Source of the DNA: Helicobacter sp. 16-1353
GTDB lineage: Bacteria > Campylobacterota > Campylobacteria > Campylobacterales > Helicobacteraceae
Length of the DNA stretch: 64,000 nt
Assembly: GCF_003288815.1 (NCBI RefSeq)
Contig: NZ_NHYM01000006.1
Span: 62,001 to 126,000, forward strand
Direction: 5' to 3'
The first letter of the stretch is position 1. Each line of letters opens with the position of its first letter. The notes under the pieces were generated by a model. That model saw nothing but the letters and a program-made list of their open reading frames with translations. It did not search any database and was not told where the DNA came from. Position numbers and translations under genes: made by a program. This document shows positions 8,342-27,198 of the stretch, one piece after another.

Positions 8342-8360
8342 ATTTTCTCCTTTTTATTAA

Positions 8361-8613
8361 TTTGACTTCGCGGACTAGCCAAGCTAGTCCTTGCGATAAG
8401 GGGCTTTGCCCCTTTAAACCCCCTAAAGCTACCCACCAATAGTGGGAGAGGCAAAACTTAGGTTTCGCCGACATTAGCGGAATCACTGGTTTTTTTAGAT
8501 AAGGGGCTTTGCCCCTTTAAACCCCCTAAAGCTTCATTTATTTAGGCTTCGCCTAAAAAACGAGAAAGGTTAAGGTTTTTATTTCGTATTCTGGCACTAC
8601 TAGACTTTACGAC
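8361..8613. repeat. Composite hairpin repeat between metQ copies (modules A, B, C)
   Basis: The 8342-8754 gap holds no gene. Module A (8361-8430) starts TTTGACTTCGCGG, has an 8-bp stem GGACTAGC/GCTAGTCC (8372-8379, 8383-8390), and ends with a 36-bp unit containing the AAGGGGC/GCCCCTT hairpin (8395-8430). That 36-bp unit recurs without mismatch at 8498-8533. Module B (8431-8495) contains CCACCAATAGTGGGAGAGGC and GGTTTCGCCGACATTAGCGG. TTTAGGC/GCCTAAA forms another hairpin at about 8541-8557. Module C (8564-8613) is shared almost base for base with 9656-9705. The element sits in the 5' leader of metQ copy 2 when read on the minus strand. 8614-8754 shows nothing else recognisable. Confidence 0.85.
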
Positions 8614-8754
8614 AAGGGATAATTTCTCAGCTACCCACAAAGTTTTTGCGGGAGAGCGAGAAAATAGCTCTCACACCAACTCTATCTGCCAATAGAAACT
8701 CACTTTATTGCTTCCCTAAAAATTATTTGTATGAGTTTCGCCAAAGATTCTACC

Positions 8755-9540
8755 TTAATTTTTTGTTACAGGCACGATTTCGCCCTTATATTTTTGCAAG
8801 ATAAATTCCTTTACTTCCTTACCCAACAACACTTCTTGGACTTTTAAAATATTTAGATTATTTTCATTGCCTTTTTTAGTGGCAAAAACATTCACATACG
8901 AACTTTTATCATTCTCGTGGAAAAATGCCTCTTTGATACTCATACCCGCTTGAAGTGCGTAGTTTGCGTTAATCACCGCCGCATCAACACCATCAACAAT
9001 TTTTGGTAACATCGCCGCTTCGACTTGGTGAAATTTGAATTTCTTAGGATTTTCGATTATATCAAACTCGGTAGAATCCAAATTATTCCCATCTTTTAGC
9101 TTAATTACGCCATTATCATGGAGTAAAATGAGTGCGCGAGAGTAATTCGTAGGGTCGTTTGGAAGTGCGATTGTAGAGCCTTTTTTTATAGAATCTACAC
9201 TTTTATATTTTTTAGAATAAAAGCCAAGAGGCACGACATACACAGGCTCTAAAGCTATTAAATCAAAACCTCTATCTTTATTTGTTTTCTCTAAATAAGG
9301 CTTATGCTGATACATATTTGCGTCGCTTGAGCCATCATTTAGGGCGATATTTGGCGTAACATAGTCGGTGAAACTCTGCACGATTAGATTAATCCCCTGT
9401 TTTGCCAAAAGTGGTTTTGCAAACTCTAAAATCTCTGCTGCTGGAACAGGCGTAGCACCGACTTTCACATCAACTAACTTGCCATTTTCTGCCATTAAGC
9501 TAGTTAAAAAGACTAATAAAACAAATGCGATTTTTTTCAT
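8755..9540 (-). CDS. metQ: MetQ-type methionine-binding protein (copy 1), signal peptide without lipobox Cys
   Basis: 261 residues, NlpA/MetQ family. The signal peptide MKKIAFVLLVFLTSLMAENG has no Cys near the cleavage site, so this copy looks soluble periplasmic, unlike copy 2. The mature part has VKVGATPVPAAEILEFAKP, SFTDYVTPNIALNDGSSDAN, NDPTNYSRALILLH and a C-terminal LQKYKGEIVPV that parallels copy 2 (EQNYKGEIVSVF). The two copies are clearly paralogous and in the same orientation. It carries the same AAAAGGAGAAAATATG start context as copy 2, so gene and leader were probably duplicated together. It lies about 560 bases downstream of metI, with repeats between. Confidence 0.92.
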   Translation of the reverse strand: MKKIAFVLLVFLTSLMAENGKLVDVKVGATPVPAAEILEFAKPLLAKQGINLIVQSFTDYVTPNIALNDGSSDANMYQHKPYLEKTNKDRGFDLIALEPVYVVPLGFYSKKYKSVDSIKKGSTIALPNDPTNYSRALILLHDNGVIKLKDGNNLDSTEFDIIENPKKFKFHQVEAAMLPKIVDGVDAAVINANYALQAGMSIKEAFFHENDKSSYVNVFATKKGNENNLNILKVQEVLLGKEVKEFILQKYKGEIVPVTKN

Positions 9541-9556
9541 ATTTTCTCCTTTTTAT

Positions 9557-9822
9557 TTTGACTTCGCGGAGGAACTAAGTTCCTCCTTGCGACGAAGGGC
9601 TTCACCCTTTCGAAACCCCTAAAGCTACGAATATTTTTGCTAAAGCAAAAAATTCGAGAAAGCTAAGGTTTTTATTTCGTATTCTAGCACTACTAGACTT
9701 TACGACGCTTTCAAAACCCCAAAACAAGGCTTTAGCCGAAGTTTCCTGTCAAAGCTATCCACCAAAGGTGGGAGAGGCGAAACCTAGTTTCGCCGGCAAT
9801 AGTGGAATCACTAGTTTTTTAG
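9557..9822. repeat. Composite hairpin repeat between metI and metQ (modules A, C, D, B)
   Basis: Module A begins TTTGACTTCGCGG (9557-9569) with an 8-bp stem GGAGGAAC/GTTCCTCC (9568-9575, 9579-9586). The stem sequence differs from the 8372-8390 copy, but pairing is fully kept. Module C is at 9656-9705. Module D (9716-9755) reads CCCCAAAACAAG...CGAAGTTTCCT. Module B (9757-9822) contains CCACCAAAGGTGGGAGAGGC and TTTCGCCGGCAATAGTGG. Modules A, D and B recur in this order inside the mod gene at 26590-26748. The rest of the gap (9823-10099) has more short TAGCTT/AAGCTA hairpins and no gene I can support. Confidence 0.85.
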
Positions 9823-10099
9823 CTAAGGACTTAGCCCTTTAAAACCCAAAGTGTAGCTTCCTTAAGCATAGCTTCGTGTAATATTGGCTTTAGCTAATTT
9901 CTTTGTCAAACCCCAACGACGCTTCTTGCGGTGTTATGCTTCGCCCAGAATCTAAGCTAATCTAAAAATTGCAAAGTAATTTTTAAGAATCTCGAAAAAA
10001 GGCGGTTGGTAAAAAATGCATTTTAGCCACCTAGCAAAGCTTTTTATTACTCCACATAAAATCAATAATCTTAGATTCTAGAATCTAAAAACCCTTATT

Positions 10100-11966: not shown

Positions 11967-12284
11967 AGCTCGTATTTTAAGGATTTTATTAGATTTTATT
12001 TCACAAAGCATATTATCTATAATAATTTTAATTTTGCGATTATTTCTGCCAATGTTGGCAAATATGTGGAATCTAGCGAAGAAAATGAGAAAAAAGCCAT
12101 TGCAGAATCCGCCATAGAATCCAGCGTAGATTCTATGGAATCCACATTGGAATAATCCGCTACAGAATCTAGCATAGAATCTACAGCATCCACACTAAAT
12201 TCTTTAGATTCTAGCAACCCCAAATCGCCCAAAAATCGCAATATAAATAAAAAACGCCAAGATTCTAGAATCCAAGCTAGATAA
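11967..12284 (+). pseudogene. Gene fragment with Glu-Ser/Asp-Ser repeat, interrupted by a stop
   Basis: The frame is open from 11967 to a TAA at 12153-12155 and then reopens to 12284. It reads a short normal stretch (YNNFNFAIISANVGKYVESS) and then ES/DS repeats (AIAESAIESSVDSMESTLE, stop, SATESSIESTASTLNSLDSS). No usable ATG precedes it. It looks like the end of a lost gene carrying the same GAATC-type expansion seen in thyX, lutC and mod. The original gene is not recognisable. The flanks 11780-11966 and 12285-12497 are AT-rich, with no feature I can support. Confidence 0.4.
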
Positions 12285-12497
12285 ATTAGGCTATCTCTAC
12301 TTTAGATTGCGTAGTAATAAGGCATAAGTGTTACAATCTAGCAACAGAGCAGTTTTTATTATTTATATTGCGGATTTGGCGGAGTTTTTAAATGCGGTGA
12401 TTTTGTGGATTTTGGCTAAAGTTTGGATTTCATATTTTGCAAGAATTGTAGAGCTTATTTAAGAATCTTATAAGGCTAGGAGAAAGTTTATAAATTC

Positions 12498-22223: not shown

Positions 22224-24725
22224 CTAATCTTTTGCTAAAAATTCATTATAAGCATTGATAAATCGTTCATCATTGACTTGTCTAAAAAATGGCAATCCAT
22301 ATAAATTTAGCTTATGATTTATCCTAATATCTGGATTTTTGTATTTTAGGTATGCTAAAAATTCCTCTTTCCAAGAATCATTTCCCTCCAAATGCTTACC
22401 TTTTGCTTCAATAAAACATTCTATACTAAAAAAATCCTTATTTTTCTTTTTTCCAAAAAATATAAAATCTGGCTCAAATCCCACTAAATAGCTTTCTTTG
22501 TCTTTGCGGTCATCATATAGCTTGAATTCTTCAAATCCCTCATTTCTCACAACAAACCATTTTGAAAAAATATTATCAATTTCATTTTTTCTGCTATCTA
22601 TAAAATTTAAAAAATCAATCTCTAATTGACTATCTTTTAATATGGTTTTATAATAAAGCCATTCGTAGTTTAAATCATCTTTGTGTTTAGTGGTAAATAT
22701 GATTCTCTCTTTCATCTCAAATTCATATACTTTAAAATCGCTAATCTCATATTCTTGTTTCATTTTTTCCTTGATGGTTTTAAAACTCTCAAGTATGAAT
22801 TTAGCAATTTCTAGTTTATTTTCTGTAGTAAATGATTGTTTTTTATGAAATAAAATAGATATTTTCCCTAAGTAGTTTTCAATAAAATCCTTCTTGCTAG
22901 AACAATTAAATATTTCTATATCATTAAAACTTATTTGTAGAATATTCATAGCCTTTAAAAAATATTGATTCTCAATAGAATTGATATTTTTAGCAACCAA
23001 ATCATTACTATCTTTTTTGGATTCCTTAAAATCCTCTTCGTTTAGTAAAATATCTTTAGAAATCAATGGAATCTCAATCTTTCTAATTTCCGTTTTTACA
23101 TCCTCTATATTTATTTTAAATTCTTTTTTTACTTGCTTATTATTTTTAGCATAGAATATTTTCTCATTTTTGATTTTTTCTTTTAGTGTTGGATTGGGCT
23201 TTAAGTGGATTTTTTCTTTAGTATCTTCTAGGAGCAATCCATACTCTCTTATAGATTTATTTAGGTCTTCTATAAAACTAACTTCATTTAAAGTGTGGTA
23301 AGTTAATCTTTCTAATATGCTTAATTCATTATTCAAATCATTGTCAAATTTTCTTTTATATCGTAATTCGTCATCAAATTCATTTATCAAAAAAGGGCAA
23401 TATCTCGCACCCCGCCCTATTAATTGAGCTTCTTTTGTTGTATAACTTTTTTTTGAGCCTTTGCCTAAGCGAACTATATCAAATAGATTTAAAACATCCC
23501 AGCCTTCATTAAGCTTATCAACTGCAAAAATTATCCTTATAAGATTATCTCTATCCTCTAATGAGTTTAATAAAAGTTGGTTTTGCTCTACTTCTTTATC
23601 ATCATTTGTATTTAAAATATATTCTTTCTTAAAATTATTTTTTAAAAATCTTGCCAATGTCCCAAACATTGCCTCTTTAAACTCTGTTTTATAAAAATCA
23701 AAATGTTGTTTTAATATCTCATTATTTTCAAAATTAATATTTTTATAAAAATCCTCTATAACAAACCCATCTATATTATCTAGGAAATCGATAAATTTAC
23801 ATTGATTTTCTTTTGAAGTGGCAATATTTTCGCTTTTAAATAAAATGACAGGCTTTAGCTTTTCACCTTTTTTATTTGCCACAAGCTCTCTATATAAACT
23901 CATAAGCAATGCTCCTAAAAATCTATCATTTAAGTCATCACTTTCATATTTAAAAAGAAGGATTCTCTTGGCATATCCATCTCCACAAAATTTTTTTAAA
24001 TCATATTCATAGATTATTTTATCTTGGTATTTTTCTGCTACATTTTTATCCTTAGGTATAGTCGCACTAAATTCAAGTAGTAGATTTTCATCATTTGTAT
24101 TAAAAGCTTTATTGATGATAGTCTCCCAATCATCAATATTTTCTTGTTCTGTTTTATTTAGCTTTTTAGTGTTTGAGTTTAGATGATGTGCTTCATCGGC
24201 TAGAAATACAAGCTTTTTGTTTTCCAAATCTTGCAGAGTTAAAGCATTTTCTCTCTCATATTTAAAAAGAGAAAATAAAGATTGAATAGTAGTAAAATAT
24301 ATATTTATAGCATTTTCCTTGCTTTCATCAAGATTATTAATTGTATTAATCTCTATATTTTCACTTTTTATTAATATATTTTCATTAAATAAATATTTAT
24401 TAGAATATTTATTTACAAAATTTTCTTTTGTTTTCTCTAAAATTGAATGTGAATTAACGAAAAACACAAAATCCCTATATCCCCTTTTATAGCAATCCAG
24501 CATTAATGCCGCCATTACTACCGTTTTCCCACTACCAGTCGCCATATTAAACATTAGGTGATTTTTCTTAAATGTATCATTATTTGCCATATAGAATTTT
24601 AAGGCTTCTTGTTGATATTCCCTTAATTCCTTGCTTAGATTATCCCTAATATGGCTTGGAATCTCCATTTTATTAAATGTCTGTTTGCCGATTTCAATTA
24701 GAATATTTTCATATAGCTTACTCAT
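22224..24725 (-). CDS. res: Type III restriction enzyme Res subunit
   Basis: ATP-dependent helicase-nuclease subunit of a type III restriction-modification system, 833 residues from ATG 24725. Walker A ATGSGKT is at 62-68, DEAH-type box VFLADEAHHL, helicase motif VI QLIGRGARYCPF. A C-terminal PD-(D/E)xK nuclease is seen as GFEPDFIFFG...CFIEAKGK. I chose the ATG at 24725, which overlaps the mod stop by 8 bases (ATGAGTAA), over an earlier ATG at 24764 inside mod; MSKLYENILIEIGKQ is a natural beginning. It is coupled to mod, so restriction falls or rises with mod phase. Confidence 0.93.
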   Translation of the reverse strand: MSKLYENILIEIGKQTFNKMEIPSHIRDNLSKELREYQQEALKFYMANNDTFKKNHLMFNMATGSGKTVVMAALMLDCYKRGYRDFVFFVNSHSILEKTKENFVNKYSNKYLFNENILIKSENIEINTINNLDESKENAINIYFTTIQSLFSLFKYERENALTLQDLENKKLVFLADEAHHLNSNTKKLNKTEQENIDDWETIINKAFNTNDENLLLEFSATIPKDKNVAEKYQDKIIYEYDLKKFCGDGYAKRILLFKYESDDLNDRFLGALLMSLYRELVANKKGEKLKPVILFKSENIATSKENQCKFIDFLDNIDGFVIEDFYKNINFENNEILKQHFDFYKTEFKEAMFGTLARFLKNNFKKEYILNTNDDKEVEQNQLLLNSLEDRDNLIRIIFAVDKLNEGWDVLNLFDIVRLGKGSKKSYTTKEAQLIGRGARYCPFLINEFDDELRYKRKFDNDLNNELSILERLTYHTLNEVSFIEDLNKSIREYGLLLEDTKEKIHLKPNPTLKEKIKNEKIFYAKNNKQVKKEFKINIEDVKTEIRKIEIPLISKDILLNEEDFKESKKDSNDLVAKNINSIENQYFLKAMNILQISFNDIEIFNCSSKKDFIENYLGKISILFHKKQSFTTENKLEIAKFILESFKTIKEKMKQEYEISDFKVYEFEMKERIIFTTKHKDDLNYEWLYYKTILKDSQLEIDFLNFIDSRKNEIDNIFSKWFVVRNEGFEEFKLYDDRKDKESYLVGFEPDFIFFGKKKNKDFFSIECFIEAKGKHLEGNDSWKEEFLAYLKYKNPDIRINHKLNLYGLPFFRQVNDERFINAYNEFLAKD

Positions 24726-27198
24726 TTTCGCCCCCATTTTCGGCATTCTTATAGAAAATATCATTTAGCTTTTTAGTCAATTCATCGATATTGTAATCCC
24801 CATCTTTAATGTCCCCATAGAGCACATAGTCCATATTAGAATCTAGTATTAAGTGCAATATTTTCTTTTTAGATTCTAACTCCAAGCTCTCAAACTCCCC
24901 ATCTTTCAGCATTTCCCTTATATCCACGCGATAGTCTATAAACGCCTTAGTTTTTAGCTCATCATAGATTTTTGTAAGATTAGATTCATCATTTAGATTC
25001 TCTATCTTTTCCTTATATGCCACATTTAACGGCATTAGCTCCATATAGATAAAGGAATTTTTAGCGTAATATTTATCGTTTTTATCTAAATCCGGATTCT
25101 TAGGATTCCAACCAACCGCCTTGGAGATTCCCCCTTGTTCGCCATTTACTACTTTTTTAAGTCGCTCTTTTGTGATAGATTCTATATAGTCCATTTGCTC
25201 GATACCGATATAGCGGCGATTCATCTTGTGAGCGACGGCAAGTGTGGTGCCACTGCCGGCGAAAAAGTCCATAACAAGGTCGTTTTCTTGTGTGGAGATT
25301 TCGATTATTCTTTTTAGGAGTGCTTCTGGCTTTGGAGTGCTAAAAAGCTTGTCTTTTTGCGATAAATCGGGGAGTTTGCCTTTCGCTTCGTCAATAGACG
25401 CCCAAGTCTTATTTCCTTGCTCAAGGCTACACAACCCCAATTTATCATCAAAAATACTTCGCTCATTTTGAGAATCTAAAAATAGGGCTTTGATTTCATC
25501 TTTTGCATTTGCTGTATTCGATAGATTTATCCAAATTGTTTCAGGTATACTGCCGTCATGTTCATTCAAAAATAATTTTCTATAAAGATTGTTATTTATT
25601 ACAATCAATTTATTTGCATTGTCTAATTCTTGCATTGTTTGTTGTGAAACAAGCCACTCTTTAGAATCTATGAAAACTCCGCTATTTGTAGTATAAGAAT
25701 AAGCTCTACTTCCACCTTGCCCCCTTCTTCTCCACAATGCCAATTTTCTATATTTTCCACGCGAATCGTTATCTGGATTCTGATATTGCTCTAATGTTTG
25801 TTGCTCCAATTCAATTTTTGAAAATGCCAAGTTTTGTATACTTTTGGCGTAAACTAAAATATATTCACCTACCCTACTTAAAAATTTTGCCGAATTGTCT
25901 TTACCCCTTTTTCTGTGCCAAGTAATATTAGCCACAAAATTTTCCCGTCCAAAAATCTCATCGCATAGCACTTTTAAATATGCCTGTTCGTTGTCGTCGC
26001 ATTGGATAAATATCACGCCGTCATCTCGTAAAAACTCCCTTGCTACTTCAAGGCGATTTTTCATAAACACAAGCCAAGTGGAGTGGGAAAATCTATCATT
26101 ATAATTAAAGCTATCATTGCCCGTGTTATAAGGCGGGTCGATATAGATTAGCTTTACTTGCTTTGCGAATTTTTTCTTTATGGAGTGAAGTGCTAGGAGA
26201 TTATTGCCCTTTATAAGCAAGTTTGGAGAATCTTTAAGGGCGGAAATTAGAGAATCTAAATCGCTAGAATCTGTATTTTTGGGGGTTTTGGAATCTTGGG
26301 AATCTGAATCTTTGGAATCTGCATTTTTGGAATCCACATTCGCAGAGTCTAAATTTAAAGAATCTTTAGAATCTGCGGAATCCGTGCTTTTAGAATCCGG
26401 ATTCTTAGAATCTTTAAAATCCGGATTTTTGACATTTTTGGAATCTGTATTCTTGGAATCGTCCGCAGAATCTGCGGAATTTGTAGAATCTAAATCGTTA
26501 GAATCCGGATTCGCGAAATCTAAGCTTAAAGATTTCTCAAGATTAGATTCTAAGCCTTTAAGCCCCCCCCCCATACATACAGAATCTTTTAGTGAATCAC
26601 CACTAACGGCGAAAGTAAAACTTTCGCTTCTCGGGGCGTCAGTCCCTGAATCTTTGGCAAGGAAACTTCGCTCCGCTTGTTTTGGGTGGTCAAGGGGGCG
26701 AAGCCTTTCGTCGCAAGGAGTAGTTTCGCCACTTCGCGAAGTCAAACTAATGAGTTCAAAATTACAAAGAACTTTCGGTTTAAAAAGCACATCGATTTCA
26801 TCAAATGCAAGGACTTCGTTAAAGAAAATCTCATTTTGCTTTTGGCTATCCTTGCTCTGTCCTCCCTTCAAAACGCAATCTTTAAAGGCAAAGTTAAGCA
26901 CCACTTCATAATTTGTTTTTAAAAATGCTTTGTTTTTATTGCCAAGTCCAATCTTACTTGAAAATGCACTATAGCTACCATTTAACATTTTAAAATCTAA
27001 AAAAGTTAAAAAATCGCTTTGTTTAAACAATAAAATATCATTAATTTTTATAAAAAATCTATTCTTAAATTCTTGTGAAAATTTACTTTCATTTAACAAA
27101 TATTCTAATAATTCTTTATCGTATTTTTGTGCTAGATTCCGCACGAAAGATAATGTTTCAAATCGTTTTTTCAAGTCTTGCAATAGCTCATTTATCAT
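24718..27198 (-). CDS. mod: Type III DNA methyltransferase Mod, phase-variable, ON here, with two repeat insertions
   Basis: N6-adenine methyltransferase and specificity subunit, 826 residues. The N-terminal domain is about 1-150. Residues about 151-203 are the in-frame palindromic element, then GGG at 209-211 from a G10 tract, then an Asp-Ser/Lys-rich run to about residue 330. The catalytic region follows: IYIDPPYNTGNDSFNY (motif IV), a target-recognition region, and MDFFAGSGTTLAVAHKMNRR (SAM motif), the beta-class order of type III Mods. G10 is in frame, so the gene is ON. The start has AAGGG upstream. The first 150 residues match the catalytic part in style, so the whole 151-330 segment looks like an acquired linker. 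Confidence 0.95.
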   Translation of the reverse strand: MINELLQDLKKRFETLSFVRNLAQKYDKELLEYLLNESKFSQEFKNRFFIKINDILLFKQSDFLTFLDFKMLNGSYSAFSSKIGLGNKNKAFLKTNYEVVLNFAFKDCVLKGGQSKDSQKQNEIFFNEVLAFDEIDVLFKPKVLCNFELISLTSRSGETTPCDERLRPLDHPKQAERSFLAKDSGTDAPRSESFTFAVSGDSLKDSVCMGGGLKGLESNLEKSLSLDFANPDSNDLDSTNSADSADDSKNTDSKNVKNPDFKDSKNPDSKSTDSADSKDSLNLDSANVDSKNADSKDSDSQDSKTPKNTDSSDLDSLISALKDSPNLLIKGNNLLALHSIKKKFAKQVKLIYIDPPYNTGNDSFNYNDRFSHSTWLVFMKNRLEVAREFLRDDGVIFIQCDDNEQAYLKVLCDEIFGRENFVANITWHRKRGKDNSAKFLSRVGEYILVYAKSIQNLAFSKIELEQQTLEQYQNPDNDSRGKYRKLALWRRRGQGGSRAYSYTTNSGVFIDSKEWLVSQQTMQELDNANKLIVINNNLYRKLFLNEHDGSIPETIWINLSNTANAKDEIKALFLDSQNERSIFDDKLGLCSLEQGNKTWASIDEAKGKLPDLSQKDKLFSTPKPEALLKRIIEISTQENDLVMDFFAGSGTTLAVAHKMNRRYIGIEQMDYIESITKERLKKVVNGEQGGISKAVGWNPKNPDLDKNDKYYAKNSFIYMELMPLNVAYKEKIENLNDESNLTKIYDELKTKAFIDYRVDIREMLKDGEFESLELESKKKILHLILDSNMDYVLYGDIKDGDYNIDELTKKLNDIFYKNAENGGENE
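26226..26530 (-). repeat. Asp-Ser-encoding GAATC repeat run in mod
   Basis: About 300 bases dense in AGAATC/GGAATC (plus strand), read in mod as runs of DS, NS and ADS with Lys and Pro spacers (for example DSKNADSKDSDSQDSK). The period is irregular, 9-18 bases. It follows the poly-G tract. Confidence 0.85.
26563..26572 (-). repeat. Poly-G(10) contingency tract in mod
   Basis: Ten C on the plus strand. The gene stays open across it, encoding CMGGGLKG. Gain or loss of one base would end Mod at about residue 215-230 and silence the methyltransferase. Confidence 0.92.
26590..26748 (-). repeat. Palindromic element (modules A-D-B) inserted in frame in mod
   Basis: In the coding sense it starts TTTGACTTCGCG, has CTCCTTGCGACGAA (module A), CCCAAAACAAG...CGAAGTTTCCT (module D), then GCGAAAGT/ACTTTCGC and GTTAGTGGTGATTCACTA (module B). 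The same modules in the same order occur at 9557-9822. It is translated as about 53 residues beginning LTSRSGETTPCDER, ending FTFAVSGDSL, with no stop. Confidence 0.85.

What the first reader, a model, noticed from the sequence alone, without database searches (positions are those of the whole stretch)
8372..9586. Compensatory changes in the module A stem suggest a structured RNA
The stem at 8372-8390 is GGACTAGC/GCTAGTCC, and at 9568-9586 it is GGAGGAAC/GTTCCTCC. The sequences differ at several positions, yet all eight pairs are kept. The flanking TTTGACTTCGC and CTTGCGA are unchanged. Both copies are just upstream of a metQ start on the minus strand. Pairing kept through sequence change points to selection on a hairpin, in RNA or in single-stranded DNA.
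Basis: seen in the sequence. Interest (0 to 1): 0.65.

Follow-up and report, generated by a model that had tools for sequence, protein, structure and literature searches.

The report
Mobile hairpin element inserted before metQ
The two hairpins beside the metQ genes belong to a large family of short, mobile, self-folding DNA inserts that has spread through Helicobacter, Campylobacter and their prophages, landing between genes, in ribosomal RNA genes and even in frame inside essential protein genes, while keeping its fold as its sequence changes.

Summary
The excess pairing is far beyond chance: in 146 distinct copies picked by their flanks, 87% of stem cells are Watson-Crick against a tree-based null maximum of 72%, and double changes are 25% against 9%.

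It is not a metQ regulator. It is the first part of a three-hairpin element of about 90 bp: 41 matches in this genome, none in four same-genus genomes, matches in 77 of 153 Campylobacteraceae genomes, and copies on prophages and a conjugative plasmid. A relative has a tight metI-metQ-metQ operon without inserts. In prophages, one site with an 89-bp element flanked by a 38-bp duplication has an empty counterpart.

Copies also interrupt proteins in frame (ValRS, Cas1, a type III methylase, UvrC, UbiX, TrpF) and a 16S rRNA. The nearest known kind is the Rickettsia palindromic element. No Y1 transposase was found in carriers and few have a reverse transcriptase, so the mover is unknown. Between genes, hairpin A usually faces the downstream start codon. 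Wobble pairs suggest the folded strand is the sense strand, but RNA and single-stranded DNA are not separated.

The parts
8366..8396 (-). Hairpin A, copy 1: CTTCGC-GGACTAGC-CAA-GCTAGTCC-TTGCGA on the + strand (outer stem TCGC/GCGA, TT bulge, 8-bp variable stem, 3-nt loop); folded strand taken as minus (metQ sense)
   Evidence: sequence, model R1 hit, folds
8397..8416 (-). Hairpin B, copy 1 (TAAGGGGCTTTGCCCCTTTA), covarying
8425..8449 (-). Module C, copy 1: AAAGCTAC-hairpin-GAGA with variable stem (CCCACCAATAGTGGG)
8450..8489 (-). Module D, copy 1: GGCAAAAC..GTTTCGCC plus GGAATCACTGG tail; a similar module ends the ValRS and Mod coding inserts
8572..8637 (-). Second, more diverged A+B unit in the same insert (outer stem TCGT/ACGA, i.e. 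compensated)
   Evidence: R1 hit 6.9e-15
8342..8754 (-). Whole composite insert between the two metQ genes (413 bp; about 10 bp in relative G004)
9562..9592 (-). Hairpin A, copy 2: CTTCGC-GGAGGAAC-TAA-GTTCCTCC-TTGCGA
9593..9612 (-). Hairpin B, copy 2 (CGAAGGGCTTCACCCTTTCG), compensated relative to copy 1
9621..9659 (-). Module C, copy 2 with a different, longer stem (CGAATATTTTTGCTAAAGCAAAAAATTCG)
9665..9730 (-). Second diverged A+B unit of insert 2
   Evidence: R1 hit 1.6e-12
9751..9814 (-). Further C+D modules of insert 2
9541..10099 (-). Whole composite insert between metI and the first metQ (559 bp; metI and metQ overlap by 4 nt in G004)
26686..26751 (+). A+B unit inserted in frame in the type III DNA methylase gene (24718-27198, minus strand; peptide TSRSGETTPCDERLRPLDHPK)
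   Evidence: R1 hit 6.5e-17, ORF, translation, Pfam domains on either side

Best explanation
The metQ hairpins are the leading hairpin (A) of a non-coding mobile palindromic element of about 90 bp, in composite copies up to several hundred bp, made of successive hairpins A, B and C (and D here) with conserved flanks, bulge and linker (ACTTCGC ... TTGCGA ... ACCCCTAAAG) and variable but compensated stems. It inserts with duplication of target DNA in at least some cases, and is carried between Campylobacterota by prophages and plasmids. Between genes it settles mostly in the orientation that puts hairpin A next to the downstream start codon or rRNA 5' end. The pairing is kept because propagation needs a folded single strand. 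Shown: the family, the covariation, the empty sites, one clear 38-bp duplication, in-frame and rRNA insertions, the orientation bias. Inferred: that the selected strand is the transcribed sense strand, that folding is needed for mobility rather than for host benefit, and that the mover acts in trans. In the metQ operon it is most likely a tolerated insert between cistrons, not a metQ-specific regulator.
For: Family and pairing. Patchy spread: 0 of 4 same-genus genomes, 4 of 121 in the family, 77 of 153 Campylobacteraceae genomes, named Helicobacter and Campylobacter records, IMG/VR viral contigs, C. jejuni conjugative plasmid between Mu-transposase and AAA-ATPase genes. Empty sites: metI-metQ-metQ, ValRS in 15 relatives, prophage L221 against L233 and L226 with a 38-bp duplication, L217 against L213, adjacent duplications of 14-24 bp elsewhere. 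In-frame inserts with split domains. 16S insert after nt 208. Orientation: 41 sense against 16 antisense, p=0.0013; 15 against 3 in viral contigs. TT bulge kept in 104 of 110 distinct stems.
Against: No mover was found: Y1 transposase absent above cut-off in 20 genomes, reverse transcriptase absent from 9 of 10 carriers tested. Duplications are clear at only some sites; in the window they are 7-9 bp and not distinguishable from chance, and at score >=20 flank matches exceed controls only 52 to 36. Orientation counts rest on crude ORF calls and some loci are related. The wobble asymmetry is concentrated at three of 20 pair positions.
Confidence: 0.8

Rival explanations
1. A cis-acting structured RNA (leader or riboswitch-like, or an RNA processing or stability element) kept by the host for the genes it precedes, including metQ.
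For: Hairpin A in the sense strand often ends within some 20 nt of a start codon and directly before 16S and 23S rRNA; folds are stable (z -3.2 to -5.6).
Against: No shared gene set; 41 hits in one genome and none in its four genus mates; copies inside coding genes, mostly in the opposite orientation; no Rfam family at gathering score; no insert in the metQ operon of a relative.
Confidence: 0.12
2. Neutral palindrome correction: template switching during replication makes imperfect inverted repeats perfect, so paired changes arise without selection.
For: Known mutational route (own knowledge); stems vary freely in sequence while staying paired.
Against: The TT bulge survives in 104 of 110 distinct stems instead of being corrected; mismatches lean to one strand's wobble (120 A.C against 43 G.T; 15 of 19 informative positions), although transcription-linked mutation could add to that.
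Confidence: 0.1
3. REP-type element mobilised as a single-stranded DNA hairpin by a Y1 (RAYT/IS200) transposase.
For: Strand-specific hairpins with conserved flank and bulge resemble such substrates (own knowledge); patchy spread.
Against: PF01797 absent above cut-off in 10 carriers and 10 non-carriers; a 38-bp target duplication is not expected of Y1 enzymes, which make none (own knowledge).
Confidence: 0.05
4. An rRNA intervening sequence whose main niche is rRNA genes and which strayed elsewhere.
For: One copy is a 140-bp insert in 16S rRNA; many Campylobacter genomes hold the element before 16S or 23S; IVSs with internal stems are reported in Campylobacter and Helicobacter 16S and 23S (PMC3335488).
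Against: Most copies examined here lie outside rRNA genes; published IVS sequences were not aligned with it.
Confidence: 0.1

Closest known systems
Rickettsia palindromic elements (RPE; also Wolbachia)
   Same: About 100-150 bp, stem-loop forming, non-autonomous, between genes and fused in frame in conserved protein genes, also in RNA genes (PMC2229807).
   Different: Other phylum; several successive short hairpins with variable compensated stems instead of one long stem with terminal inverted repeats; carried on prophages; long target duplication seen.
REP elements with RAYT transposases (GTAG/CGTC families)
   Same: Short palindromic repeats in many intergenic copies (PMC3733652).
   Different: No Y1 transposase in carriers; in-frame coding and rRNA insertions; stem sequence not conserved.
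Pneumococcal BOX elements
   Same: Modular interspersed small repeats (BOX named in PMC3049150; modular make-up from own knowledge).
   Different: No sequence relation tested; BOX is not known to me to sit in frame in essential genes.
rRNA intervening sequences of Campylobacter and Helicobacter
   Same: A copy is inserted in 16S rRNA and forms stems; such IVSs are known in these genera (PMC3335488).
   Different: The element is general, with most copies outside rRNA genes.

Membership tests
Rickettsia palindromic element (RPE) | Short (about 105-146 bp) sequence predicted to fold as stem-loop | tested here: met
   89 bp between duplicated flanks in L221, 116-bp tandem unit in C. coli, 140-bp 16S insert; folds
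Rickettsia palindromic element (RPE) | Found both between genes and in frame in conserved protein genes | tested here: met
Rickettsia palindromic element (RPE) | One long stem with terminal inverted repeats | tested here: not met
   successive local hairpins A, B, C; no terminal inverted repeat seen
Rickettsia palindromic element (RPE) | Sequence homology to RPE families of Rickettsiales | not tested
   RPE sequences were not aligned; the genome-collection pattern scan returned no Rickettsiales
REP/RAYT | Y1 transposase (PF01797) in carrier genomes | tested here: not met
   0 of 20 genomes over the cut-off
Retroelement (RNA-templated insertion) | Reverse transcriptase in carriers | tested here: not met
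   PF00078 in one (the window's genome) of 10 carriers, and in 4 of 10 non-carriers
rRNA intervening sequence | Insert in a variable helix of 16S or 23S rRNA | tested here: met
   one locus only, G190 16S after nt 208; excision not testable
Known structured RNA (Rfam) | Match above a family's gathering score | tested here: not met

The most novel reading that the evidence does not exclude
A non-coding element that moves through its folded sense transcript, inserting at translation-initiation regions and rRNA 5' ends with long, variable target duplications by unknown host or prophage machinery, and that has seeded both rRNA intervening sequences and in-frame peptide inserts across Campylobacterota.
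Probability: 0.15. Interest if true: 0.85.

Novelty: new variant of a known kind. Interest (0 to 1): 0.62.

Why it matters
In-frame protein-coding palindromes are, as far as I could find, described for Rickettsiales; a family in Helicobacter and Campylobacter, in cultivable species and on prophages, would let the origin, movement and cost of such inserts be tested at the bench. It also offers one source for some rRNA intervening sequences of these genera, and a natural set of more than 100 distinct stems for asking whether RNA or DNA folding is selected.

Tried and rejected
metQ-specific riboswitch or leader: rejected, no Rfam family and copies before unrelated genes. REP/RAYT: no Y1 transposase. 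Reverse-transcriptase driver: absent from most carriers. Chance pairing: rejected by four controls. General strand asymmetry of mismatches: weaker than it first looked, since three positions carry most of it. Duplications at the two window inserts: only 7-9 bp, not significant. Literature searches found no description of this repeat in Campylobacterota, but most subscription papers are not held, and the key RPE paper of 2002 could not be read.

Full report
What was checked. Each lies about 15 nt upstream of the ribosome-binding site of a metQ-like ORF, in an operon metN-metI-metQ-metQ read on the minus strand. The stem is longer than described: TCGC/GCGA closes it across a conserved TT bulge, and a second hairpin B follows at once.

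Family. The window lies in a 1.9-Mb genome whose relatives fall in the Helicobacter/Campylobacter group. A covariance model from 16 own copies finds 41 matches at E<=0.1, 33 of them at E<=4e-5. Four same-genus genomes have none, 4 of 121 genomes of the family have it, this one included, and 77 of 153 genomes of another family, taken as Campylobacteraceae from named records, have it. A pattern that fixes the flanks and leaves the arms almost free hits Helicobacter valdiviensis, H. burdigaliensis, Campylobacter coli, C. showae, C. concisus and several metagenome-assembled Campylobacterota.

Is the pairing more than chance? Own copies: 57 double-change cells against 20.4 in shuffles, covariation score 0.448 against 0.200, and sliding the partner by 1-3 columns destroys it. 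Arm-free pattern hits: 24 distinct Campylobacterota cores pair at 5.7 of 7 free positions against 3.4 for swapped arms (maximum 4.5), while the four hits in other phyla pair at 1.5, a natural negative control. Viral-contig copies: 5.8 of 7 against 3.7, maximum 4.9. On a tree of 146 flank-selected copies with independent columns simulated, the Watson-Crick fraction is 0.874 against a null maximum of 0.723, and double changes 0.253 against 0.086. Part of these loci came in through a structure-aware model, which is why the pattern-only sets matter. Decayed copies exist but are few: 2 of 146 keep fewer than five pairs.

Which strand. Mismatches read on the model strand are A.C more often than G.T (120 against 43), that is G.U on the other strand, the metQ sense strand. 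In distinct stems the excess sits mainly at three positions, and 15 of 19 informative positions lean that way. The TT bulge is kept in 104 of 110 distinct stems, which palindrome correction would have removed. This favours a strand-specific fold, in RNA or in single-stranded DNA.

Where it sits. Between co-directional genes it is sense 41 times and antisense 16 times (p=0.0013), and 15 against 3 in viral contigs, often with hairpin A next to the start codon. Several Campylobacter copies end directly before 16S or 23S rRNA, and one is a 140-bp insert within 16S after nucleotide 208, a kind of site known for intervening sequences (PMC3335488).

In-frame copies. In this genome the element interrupts valyl-tRNA synthetase, Cas1 and the type III methylase of the window without stop codons. 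None of the 15 relatives searched carries the 80-residue ValRS insert; the eleven read out in full run straight from the YF..KDS region to the ATTRPET motif. In one rumen Campylobacter bin it interrupts malate dehydrogenase, UvrC, a LysE-type transporter, UbiX, a methyltransferase, an MMPL-like transporter and MobA; in another genome TrpF carries two. Pfam and PDB alignments show several of these domains split at the insert.

Insertion. Relative G004 has metI and metQ overlapping by 4 nt and about 10 nt between the metQ genes, where this genome has 559 and 413 bp. In prophages, L221 carries an 89-bp A-B-C unit between two copies of a 38-bp sequence present once in L233 and L226; L217 against L213 shows a second empty site. 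Other adjacent duplications of 14-24 bp occur, but many sites show none, and those at the two window inserts are too short to count. A copy lies between the Mu transposase and AAA-ATPase genes of a pTet plasmid. The mover is unknown: no Y1 enzyme, reverse transcriptase in only one of ten carriers.

Conclusion. It works like Rickettsia palindromic elements (PMC2229807) but is not shown to be a member: it lacks the single long stem with terminal inverted repeats, and sequence homology was not tested. I rate it a new variant of a known kind.

Noticed in passing
window 24718-27198 (element 26686-26751): Type III DNA methylase gene carrying an in-frame element followed by a long Asp/Ser-rich low-complexity stretch.
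   Followed up: partly
window 12080-12290; also ValRS, Cas1 and Mod ORFs: Dense TAGAATCTA/GATTCT repeats, coding for Asp-Ser runs where they fall in genes; a second repeat family of this genome.
   Followed up: no
L081, L085, L088, L101, L137, L209, L210 (rumen Campylobacter bin): The 12-mer TTCAAATTTGAA recurs in and around genes and abuts the left edge of the element in several coding insertions.
   Followed up: no
L102:2378-2791 (C. coli C8C3): Four tandem copies of the element with a 116-bp period where C. coli LMG 9860 (L080) has one.
   Followed up: partly
L066 and L069 (H. burdigaliensis-like genome): A separate palindromic repeat containing TCATTGCGAGG...GCAATC, resembling a widespread repeat of other phyla.
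   Followed up: no
L126 (16S rRNA, 140-bp insert after nt 208): The element forms a 16S rRNA intervening sequence with an added terminal stem CCCTATATATT/AATATATAGGG.
   Followed up: yes
L256 (own genome C8:28789-29367): A 663-aa frame with a reverse transcriptase domain, context not examined.
   Followed up: no
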